Shown: positions 45,901-48,900 of the stretch, piece by piece | Layout: every line of letters begins with the position of its first letter | How positions within the stretch are numbered: position 1 is the first letter of the stretch | DNA from: Meghimatium bilineatum | Taxonomy: Eukaryota > Mollusca > Gastropoda > Stylommatophora > Philomycidae | Length of the DNA: 64,000 nt | Assembly (NCBI GenBank): GCA_034231615.1 | Contig: CM067318.1 | Coordinates: forward strand, 32,629,723-32,693,722 | Direction of reading: 5' to 3' | The notes under the pieces: generated by a model | What the model was told of the DNA's origin: nothing | What the model saw: the letters and a program-made list of their open reading frames with translations, nothing else | Databases searched by the model: none | Translations under genes and position numbers: made by a program

Positions 45901-48900
45901 CAATCAACAAAGCACTTGCAGCATCAAATCCTGTAAGTATATAACAAATCCTGTAAGTATATAACAAATCCTGTAAGTATATAACAAATCCTGTAAGTAT
46001 ATAACAAATCCTTGAAGTTTATAACTACCCTGTAAGTATATAACAAATCCTGTAAGTATATAACAAATCCTTGAAGTTTATAACTACCCTGTAAGTATAT
46101 AACAAATCCTGTAAGTATATAACAAATCCTGTAAGTATATAACAAATCCTTGAAGTTTATAACTACCCTGTAAGTATATAACAAATCCTGTAAGTATATA
46201 ACAAATCCTGTAAGTATATAACAAATCCTTGAAGTTTATAACTACCCTGTAAGTATATAACAAATTCTGTAAATATATAACAACTCCTTGAAGTTTATAA
46301 CTACCCTGTAAGTATATAACAAATCCTGTAAGTATATAACAAATCCTGTAAGTATATAACAAATCCTGTAAGTATATAACAAATCCTTGAAGTTTATAAC
46401 TACCCTGTAAGTATATAACAAATCCTGTAAGTATATAACAAATCCTTGAAGTTTATAACTACCCTGTAAGTATATAACAAATCCTGTAAGTATATAACAA
46501 ATCCTGTAAGTATATAACAAATCCTTGAAGTTTATAACTACCCTGTAAGTATATAACAAATTCTGTAAATATATAACAACTCCTTGAAGTTTATAACTAC
46601 CCTGTAAGTATATAACAAATCCTGTAAGTATATAACAAATTCTGTAAATATATAACAAATTCTGTAAATATATAACAACTCCTTGAAGTTTATAACTACC
46701 CTGTAAGTATATAACAAATCCTGTAAGTATATAACAAATCCTGTAAGTATATAACAAATCCTTGAAGTTTATAACTACCCTGTAATATAACAAATTCTGT
46801 AAGTATATAACATCCTGTAAGTATATAACAAATCCTGTAAGTATATAACAAATCCTTTAAGTTTATAACTACCCTGTAAGTATATAACCAACCCTGTAAG
46901 TGCATAACCACCCTTATAATTGCATAACCAACCTTTCAAGTACATAACCAACCCTATAAGTGCATAACCAGTCCTGTAAGTAATAACCAGTCCTGTAAGT
47001 AATAACCAGTCTTGTAAGTAATAACCAACCCTGTAAGTGCATAGCCAGTCATGTAAGTACATAATAATCAGTCCTTGGTGTACATAGCCAGGCTTGCTAG
47101 TACACAATAACCAGTGTGAAGTATATAACAGTCCTGAAATACATAACCAAAGCTGTAAGTACATAACAAGTTCTTTAAGTAGTACATAGCTATTCCTTGA
47201 AGTGCATAACCAACCCTGTAAATACATAACCAGTATTTTAACTACATAACCAGTTCTTAAAGTAAATAACTAAACCTGTAGGTACATAACCACTTCTGTA
47301 AATGGTTAACTAGTCCTGTAAACTATTACTCCTATTTACTTTAGAGTATTTGTATTTTTAAAAAATGAGTTCCTTTTTCACACTGCTATATTTATGGGGA
47401 ATATATATTATGAGTTCAGTATGTTTCAGCACATTATGAAGTCTACAGAATGTTGTTACTTGTTGGTGAAATAATATTTCATCATGCACAATGTGACTAC
47501 TTTGAAAAGTGATATTAGCAATGATAAGTAAGAAATTGTGTTGACATTAATAAAAATGTTACAAATGGGTACAAATTGTAATAAATATAAATTATATGAA
47601 CAAGGATAATTTTGATGTTGTGACCAAAGAGCCTTTATCAAGAAACAACTTGTGTTTTGTTGATGTTTGTCTTCAGTTGGTGTCGCCTGTTTGGCAACTT
47701 AGGCCTGGACTTCTAGTTCAAGGTGCAAAGAATAGGGCCATTGTCTACTTTCCAGGCAGATGAAGGAATGACATGGGTCGAACCTGTCACCTGTGAACAA
47801 AAATCATCAATGTCACTTTCGATTTCTCCACTTTTACTTCTGTCGAACGATTCAATGGATGACAAAACGATACAGGCATCAGACATTGCAACTTTGTACT
47901 TTTGTAGTAGACTCCTAGGTGCAATCATATGCTAGATGTGCCATCAATGTGGATGGGTCAACAAATCTGACAGAAGAATGGTTGACCCAGAAGTGCATAT
48001 TGCGATCCTGGCAGGACCTATTGTGATCCTGGAATACTGCCCAACTGGAATGTCTTCCTTTGGAGACTAAACTTGCACATGCGGTTGTGTTCGTGGGTCT
48101 CACCAATGGCTCACTAGACAAACTAACCATGCAACAGAAAACCTTTGTAGATGACATGTCGTTATATTGAGGTTATCTTCTTATAAAAGCTTCATGGCAC
48201 GTCATCTATACAATCCAGTAGTCGTAACCTTCGATTAACAGTTACCATATTGTTCCGACATGCCGATGTTGCGCTTGAACTAGTTGCAGGCACGGCATGT
48301 GTGGGCGGAACAACAAAGAAACCTGTCGCATGGGCCAGAGTTGTGCCCTGATGTCGACGTCTGTTTCGGCGGCATTAGACTTGAAACACCATCGAGTCAA
48401 ATGGCTGCTGGAACAGAGGGCGGAGCACTTATGGGAATGCCCCACATGCTGTGAGACCAGTTTTCTATTCAAGAACTAAACTTGTACACATAACCCCCAC
48501 CCCCCCATACAACCTTGCCTTTGAAACAGCAAACGTTATATTGTAAGGGTGTCACGTCAGTTACTCATCTGAGGAGGACCTGTAATTTTGTGAGAAAGGC
48601 TGTCAATAGCTACCTATCTATATCTATTACCTGTAACACGTCAGGGTCGTAGGGATACACATTGGATGAATCAATACAGATTCCTCGAGTGATTTCTATC
48701 TTCAACGATGCGGACGAGTGAGGAAAAATAATGTCCTTGGTATTTTCTGTTCATGCTTATCATTGTCCTCCTTTCCTTCCACCTTCGGCTTTTCCCTGTA
48801 GTATCATTTTTGACAAGGAATCATGTCAGCATACATGTCCAAACCATGCAGAGAAGATGGGCACCACCAGTTAAACCTTTGGTTGGTTGCTGATCCAGCG

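What the first reader, a model, noticed from the sequence alone, without database searches (positions are those of the whole stretch)
45926..47320. A minisatellite grown from a 5' splice site: about 32 perfect U1-binding donors in a row
Seen: the last seven bases of exon 20 and its donor (aaatcct|gtaagtata) are the first unit of a 20-bp tandem array. About 32 exact GTAAGTATA follow within 1 kb, then decayed units to 47320. Known: GTAAGTATA pairs almost perfectly with U1 snRNA. Inference: the array arose by slippage or unequal crossing over that captured the exon end and donor. All copies in register are usable donors, so the transcript carries a dense U1-binding platform. Use of a distal copy would add the sequence between copies, usually with stop codons (gtaagtatataa contains in-frame TAA in one frame). 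It could also favour recursive splicing or block premature polyadenylation in this 5.3-kb intron.
Basis: partly seen in the sequence, partly recalled or inferred. Interest (0 to 1): 0.8.

Follow-up and report, generated by a model that had tools for sequence, protein, structure and literature searches.

The report
Repeated splice donors beginning inside an exon
In an animal gene for a microtubule-growth protein, a 20-letter repeat that includes the end of an exon and its splice signal has multiplied into dozens of copies; the array is real, but this genome is full of such repeats, and it is most likely a tolerated accident that offers a natural test of how cells choose between identical splice signals.

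Summary
A 71-unit, 20-bp array (45925-47328) begins inside the last 8 bases of an exon and carries 32 exact GTAAGTATA (0.63 expected). The gene is CKAP5/XMAP215/Mini spindles, TOG3 domain: four exons join in one open frame across this junction, and the Asn-Pro at the exon end is also in fly TOG3. The exon ends in phase 0, so 38 of the 39 GTAAGT in the array would give the same stop after three extra codons; only the first is productive.

Growth from the exon end is the best reading. A selected U1 platform is not supported: 12 of 49 young units lost the donor GT yet were co-amplified, and donor columns of the 22 old units are no better conserved than others. Zigzag recursive splicing is unlikely: 0 of 39 follow AG. 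The genome is rich in minisatellites (71 in 195 kb, 16% of bases), and triple-GTAAGT occurs at 62,494 places against 102,522 for the backwards control.

Most likely a neutral minisatellite, tolerated because exon definition favours the upstream of equal donors. No RNA data were available.

The parts
42831..43016 (+). upstream exon (TOG3 part), donor GAG|GTAAGT
   Evidence: phmmer to Mini spindles TOG3 4y5j_A, E 2.8e-5; joins in frame
44241..44332 (+). exon before the array exon; ends two bases into a codon
   Evidence: joins in frame with the next exon
45875..45932 (+).
   Evidence: sequence and joined translation; with the next exon it matches 4y5j_A at E 2.3e-13
45933..45941 (+). first and only productive donor, CCT|GTAAGTATA
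   Evidence: the only one of 39 GTAAGT choices in the array without a stop in the joined frame
45925..46887 (+). young homogeneous part of the array: 49 units (19 type A, 11 intact type C, 8 B, 4 D, 3 E, 4 others); 32 GTAAGT, 4 GTAAAT, 1 broken GT, 12 without GT
46888..47328 (+). old decayed part of the array: 22 units, majority sequence CCAGTCCT|GTAAGTACATAA; 8 GTAAGT by alignment columns
45933..51233 (+). 5,301-nt intron; AATAAA at 47549, 47580, 50501, 50584, 50870, all downstream of the array
51234..51359 (+). next exon, 42 codons, starts [18 protein letters not shown]

Best explanation
The array is a minisatellite that began as a tandem duplication of 20 bp covering the last 8 bases of a CKAP5 exon and the first 12 of its intron, and then grew by slippage or unequal exchange, most recently at the exon-proximal side. 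The duplication leaves the original exon end and donor intact as unit 1, so the protein is unharmed as long as the first donor is chosen. The exon is short (58 nt) and lies between introns of 1,542 and 5,301 nt, so it should be recognised by exon definition, in which the upstream of equally strong donors wins; this makes the array tolerable. The other donors probably bind U1 now and then but act mostly as silent decoys, and when one is used the message meets a stop after three extra codons and should be degraded by nonsense-mediated decay. Shown here: the anatomy, the reading frame, the stop, the age gradient, the single locus, the minisatellite-rich genome. Inferred: direction of growth from the exon, exon-definition choice of the first donor (a rule taken from human data), decay of the other products, neutrality.
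For: Unit 1 and the exon share CAAATCCT; the residues it encodes, Asn-Pro, are at the same place in fly TOG3. Old units still carry an Asn-Pro type AAYCCN before the junction in 5 of 22, young in 28 of 49. Identity to unit 1 falls from 0.96 in units 1-7 to 0.73 in units 57-70; mean pairwise identity 0.853 young, 0.681 old. The exact two-unit pattern occurs 18 times in the 1.61-Gb genome, all at this locus, control 0. No second copy of these exons at E 0.001 or better. Donor-dead B/E-type units were amplified with the rest, 12 of 12 followed by a C-type unit. Genome background: 71 minisatellites in 20 stretches of 10 kb (195 kb without N), 31.6 kb in all, 3 of 71 with three or more GTAAGT on one strand; 10 of 71 have a TRF score at least as high as this array, 5 of 71 are at least as long as its TRF row. 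Human minigenes with two identical CAG/guaagu donors in an exon-definition setting used the upstream one exclusively, and the upstream one is preferred among near-equal pairs between long introns (PMC9225289, abstract and first part of the Results section read).
Against: No RNA evidence: which donor is used is not known. The exon-definition rule comes from human pairs of strong donors, not from arrays, and the same paper finds downstream preference when strength is not controlled. Exon lengths of 78, 98, 118 nt and so on would also suit exon definition, so leakage to later donors may be considerable. The homogenised 5' part touches the exon, which selection for strong donors near the exon would also produce. 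The old units' majority at the exon-like positions is AGTCCT, not AAYCCT, so the ancestral unit is not settled. Only one solved homologue was available for the Asn-Pro comparison.
Confidence: 0.7

Rival explanations
1. Dosage rheostat: the distal donors act as poison donors. A share of transcripts uses them, meets the stop after three codons and is degraded, so that array length sets CKAP5 output.
For: 38 of 39 GTAAGT choices give the same early stop; all 32 GTAAGTATA have the same computed U1 pairing energy as the true donor.
Against: No sign of maintenance of donors; the exon-definition rule predicts little use; no expression data.
Confidence: 0.12
2. U1 platform: the array is kept because many bound U1 particles strengthen recognition of a donor whose exon side pairs poorly (CCT before GT), or suppress polyadenylation further down the intron.
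For: 32 sites with 8 contiguous U1-complementary bases in the array against 3 in the rest of the window; AATAAA sites begin at 47549, just beyond the array.
Against: The donor's computed pairing (-7.3 kcal/mol) is mid-range, 7th strongest of 12 candidate donors compared; donor-dead units amplified alike and donor columns not specially conserved; serial GTAAGT in the genome is not enriched over the backwards control.
Confidence: 0.08
3. Array first: a minisatellite in the intron spread up to the exon and overwrote its last bases by conversion, silently because the unit happens to encode the same residues.
For: The decayed, apparently older units lie far from the exon and the homogenised ones next to it; minisatellites are very common here.
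Against: The unit would have to encode Asn-Pro in the right frame and carry a GT exactly at the junction by chance; 5 of 22 old units keep AAYCCN directly before it.
Confidence: 0.1

Closest known systems
Competing identical 5' splice sites under exon definition (Carranza, Shenasa and Hertel 2022, PMC9225289; abstract and first part of Results read)
   Same: Equal-strength donors downstream of one acceptor between non-short introns
   Different: Two engineered or natural human donors there; up to 32 identical donors at about 20-nt spacing in one intron here, use unknown
Tandem array of dual-specific splice sites in polyubiquitin UBC (PMC10809524; abstract only)
   Same: Splice sites multiplied by tandem repetition within a gene
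   Different: There AGGT serves as donor and acceptor at unit borders of coding repeats; here 0 of 39 GTAAGT follow AG and the repeats are intronic
Tandem duplication across an intron/exon boundary with intron gain (potato RdRp, PMC4974935; abstract only)
   Same: Tandem duplication spanning a splice junction
   Different: A single duplication across an acceptor that made a new intron; here dozens of copies across a donor and no new acceptor
Variable internal tandem repeats at exon-intron boundaries of human paralogues (PMC2812944; passages only)
   Same: Tandem repeats at exon-intron boundaries changing possible gene structure
   Different: Mostly exonic repeats and novel introns; here the exon contributes 8 bases and the structure can stay as it was
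Intronic minisatellites in general, as in sea bream growth hormone (mentioned in a passage of PMC3045353)
   Same: Minisatellite in an intron
   Different: Not reported there, in the passages seen, to be built from the donor

Membership tests
Minisatellite (tandem repeat, unit about 10-100 bp) | Head-to-tail copies of a unit in that size range with higher-order and age structure | tested here: met
   period 20, 58 copies by TRF; 71 units with A/B/C/D/E types
Cluster of competing 5' splice sites | Several donor-consensus sequences downstream of one acceptor | tested here: met
   32 exact GTAAGTATA, 39 GTAAGT in the array
Cluster of competing 5' splice sites | More than one of them used in RNA | not testable with these tools
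   no RNA data
Dual-specific (AGGT) splice-site array, as in UBC | AG directly before each GT | tested here: not met
   37 CT, 1 TT, 1 AT before the 39 GTAAGT
Recursive (ratchet) splice site | Pyrimidine tract and AG joined to GT (zero-length exon) | tested here: not met
   0 of 39 GTAAGT follow AG; the 17 YAG found in the array region lie at 46969 or later, in the old part
Intron gain by tandem duplication | Duplication supplies both a donor and an acceptor | tested here: not met
   no YAG in the young units
CKAP5/XMAP215/Mini spindles gene | TOG3 sequence continuous across the exons around the array | tested here: met
   4y5j_A E 2.3e-13 and 2.8e-5; one open frame over four exons
CKAP5/XMAP215/Mini spindles gene | Pfam XMAP215_CLASP_TOG above its curated cut-off | tested here: inconclusive
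   met for two other exons of the window (73.4 and 72.1 bits, cut-off 27.1), below it for the two exons around the array (18.1 bits)
U1 platform maintained by selection | Donor positions better conserved than the rest of the unit in old units | tested here: not met
   0.818 against 0.841 and 0.756; P 0.41; 22 units only

The most novel reading that the evidence does not exclude
A tandem duplication across a splice junction has produced an evolving poison-donor array: the gene's output depends on the cell picking the first of about 32 identical donors, every other choice ends in the same stop, and array length becomes a heritable dial on a mitotic gene. Since triple-GTAAGT arrays occur at about 62,000 overlapping places in this genome, many genes may carry such dials.
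Probability: 0.1. Interest if true: 0.75.

Novelty: new variant of a known kind. Interest (0 to 1): 0.4.

Why it matters
Donor choice has been studied mostly with two competing sites. Here nature has built a graded series of identical donors about 20 nt apart behind one acceptor, with a built-in readout: only the first is productive. If the first is used almost exclusively, the cross-exon proximity rule holds against 31 identical rivals; if not, the array is a tunable poison. The minisatellite density of this genome suggests that many more such junctions exist and could be tallied.

Tried and rejected
Chance: rejected, 32 against 0.63 expected. A dispersed satellite family: rejected for the exact two-unit pattern, 18 of 18 places at this locus; the old part found itself, the young part (72%) and two weak matches elsewhere (E 5.5e-8 and 3.4e-4), which on inspection lie in or near other minisatellites: L011 holds four TRF arrays, L012 holds CATGTAAGTAATAACAAA x 8.9. 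A retrocopy that would show the splicing: none found at E 0.001 (six candidates scored). A tie to the exon's acceptor side: the exon-start word ATTAAATGT recurs twice just upstream (45833, 45850), but 5 of 100 shuffles reach the window count. Rfam and tRNA scans of the window: nothing. A second donor pattern with full AG|GTAAGTAT units in the genome and a DNA search with the young units did not complete. Print searches for a minisatellite grown from a donor: eight answered searches, of which 11, 33, 34, 44, 59 and 60 bear on this; nothing equal in the listings, but only open-licence papers are held and searches returned no paper at all.

Full report
What is there. The window holds a 20-bp tandem array on the + strand. 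TRF reports 45925-47064 with period 20 and 58 copies. Aligning unit by unit gives 71 units up to 47328. GTAAGTATA occurs 32 times, all in the array, against 0.63 expected. The first unit begins inside an exon: its first 8 bases, CAAATCCT, are the exon's last 8, and its next 12 are the start of the intron.

The gene. The exon and the one after it, joined (61 residues), match Drosophila Mini spindles TOG3 (4y5j_A) at E 2.3e-13, the only hit at E 1 or better; the exon at 42831-43016 matches an earlier stretch of the same chain at E 2.8e-5. Two other exons of the window match Pfam XMAP215_CLASP_TOG well above its cut-off; the pair around the array reaches only 18.1 bits against a cut-off of 27.1. 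Exons 42831-43016, 44241-44332, 45875-45932 and 51234-51359 read as one open frame. The gene is therefore a CKAP5/XMAP215/Mini spindles orthologue; no other copy of these exons was found in the genome at E 0.001.

Anatomy of the array. The 49 young units consist of type A (CAAATCCT|GTAAGTATATAA, 19), type C (19 bp, C-TACCCT|GTAAGTATATAA, 11), type B (donor lost, CAAATCCT|TGAAGTTTATAA, 8), D (GTAAAT, 4), E (donor lost, 3) and four single variants; 32 have GTAAGT, 4 GTAAAT, 1 a broken GT, 12 no GT. In order they read AAAABCABCAABCAABCDECAAABCABCAABCDECADDECAABxxxAxC; each of the 12 donor-dead units is followed by a C-type unit. The 22 old units (46888-47328) have 8 GTAAGT by alignment columns and 10 without GT. 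Counted literally there are 39 GTAAGT in the array, because one of the 40 column matches contains an insertion. Identity to unit 1 falls with distance, from 0.96 to 0.73.

Consequence for the message. The exon ends in phase 0 with Asn-Pro. Reading on gives Val-Ser-Ile-stop. Of 39 GTAAGT choices in the array, 38 give that same stop and one, the first, keeps the frame.

Pairing with U1 (5' end recalled, not from a call). The donor matches 9 of 11 positions with 8 in a row; its computed duplex energy is -7.3 kcal/mol, 7th strongest of the 12 candidate donors of this gene that I compared (-5.6 to -12.4; several of these exon calls are heuristic), because CCT before the GT pairs poorly. Of 3,754 GT in the window 101 are as good or better, 32 of them in the array. 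Runs of 8 or more U1-complementary bases: 32 in the array, 3 elsewhere.

Tests of the functional readings. If donors were kept by selection, they should stand out in the old units: they do not (column agreement 0.818 at +1 to +6, 0.841 at +7 to +12, 0.756 at -8 to -1; P 0.41; only 22 units). Donor-dead units were multiplied with the others. Ratchet-type recursive splicing needs AG before GT: 0 of 39. AATAAA signals of the intron lie at 47549 and beyond, so a protective role against polyadenylation is possible but not indicated (all).

Background. I took 20 stretches of 10 kb at round coordinates of the same genome (5 kb of one were N). They hold 71 minisatellites, 31.6 kb of 195 kb, though 4 of 20 stretches hold none; 3 of 71 have three or more GTAAGT on one strand. 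By TRF score 10 of 71 equal or exceed the present array, by length 5, by copy number 1. The window itself is poorer (4 arrays, 2.0 kb). In the whole genome GTAAGT-gap-GTAAGT-gap-GTAAGT (gaps 6-36) occurs at 30,659 + 31,835 places; the pattern read backwards at 50,332 + 52,190. Places overlap: the listed ones, which stop at 2.72 Mb of contig 1, fall into about 16 clusters by my count, some 6 per Mb. Donor-motif arrays are thus ordinary here and not enriched. With one minisatellite per about 2.7 kb, some exon ends should be caught by chance; how many was not counted, since no annotation was at hand.

Why it is tolerated. In human data, when donors are nearly equal and the flanking introns are long, the upstream donor is preferred; minigenes with two identical donors in an exon-definition setting used the upstream one exclusively (PMC9225289; abstract and first part of the Results read). 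The same paper reports downstream preference under intron definition and when strength is not controlled. Here the introns are 1,542 and 5,301 nt and the exon 58 nt. Transferring that rule to this animal and to 32 donors is inference.

Origin. The exon part of the unit encodes Asn-Pro, also present at that place in fly TOG3 (one homologue only). AAYCCN stands before the junction in 28 of 49 young and 5 of 22 old units. I take the exon end as the source; overwriting of the exon by an older array remains possible, as the old units' majority there is AGTCCT.

Verdict. A real and tidy structure, ordinary in kind for this genome, unusual in sitting exactly on a working donor. Its value is as a natural experiment on donor choice. 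No RNA, population or relative's sequence was available.

Noticed in passing
51380-51514: A 33-bp minisatellite (4 copies) starts 20 nt after the donor of the next exon (51359/51360) without including it.
   Followed up: partly
44633-44861 and 40710-41346: Two further minisatellites (32 bp x 7.2 and 30 bp x 21.9) in introns of the same gene.
   Followed up: partly
45825-45883: A 17-bp repeat (2.1 copies) just before the acceptor carries ATTAAATGT, which is also the start of the exon (45875); 5 of 100 shuffles reach the window count.
   Followed up: yes
46087-47269 (minus strand): The array is open on the minus strand for up to 204 codons in one frame, because its unit lacks stops there; looks mechanical.
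   Followed up: no
18508-22935: Two near-identical open reading frames in opposite orientation (minus 18508-20810, plus 20611-22935) that look like pieces of a non-LTR retrotransposon (reverse transcriptase and RNase H like by my reading, not searched), an inverted pair in one intron.
   Followed up: no
L012:1490-1650: An 18-bp minisatellite CATGTAAGTAATAACAAA x 8.9 elsewhere in the genome (same locus on contig C7), another serial donor motif; no exon recognised beside it by eye.
   Followed up: partly
L016-L035: Minisatellites fill about 16% of the sampled genome (71 arrays in 195 kb), which seems very high.
   Followed up: partly
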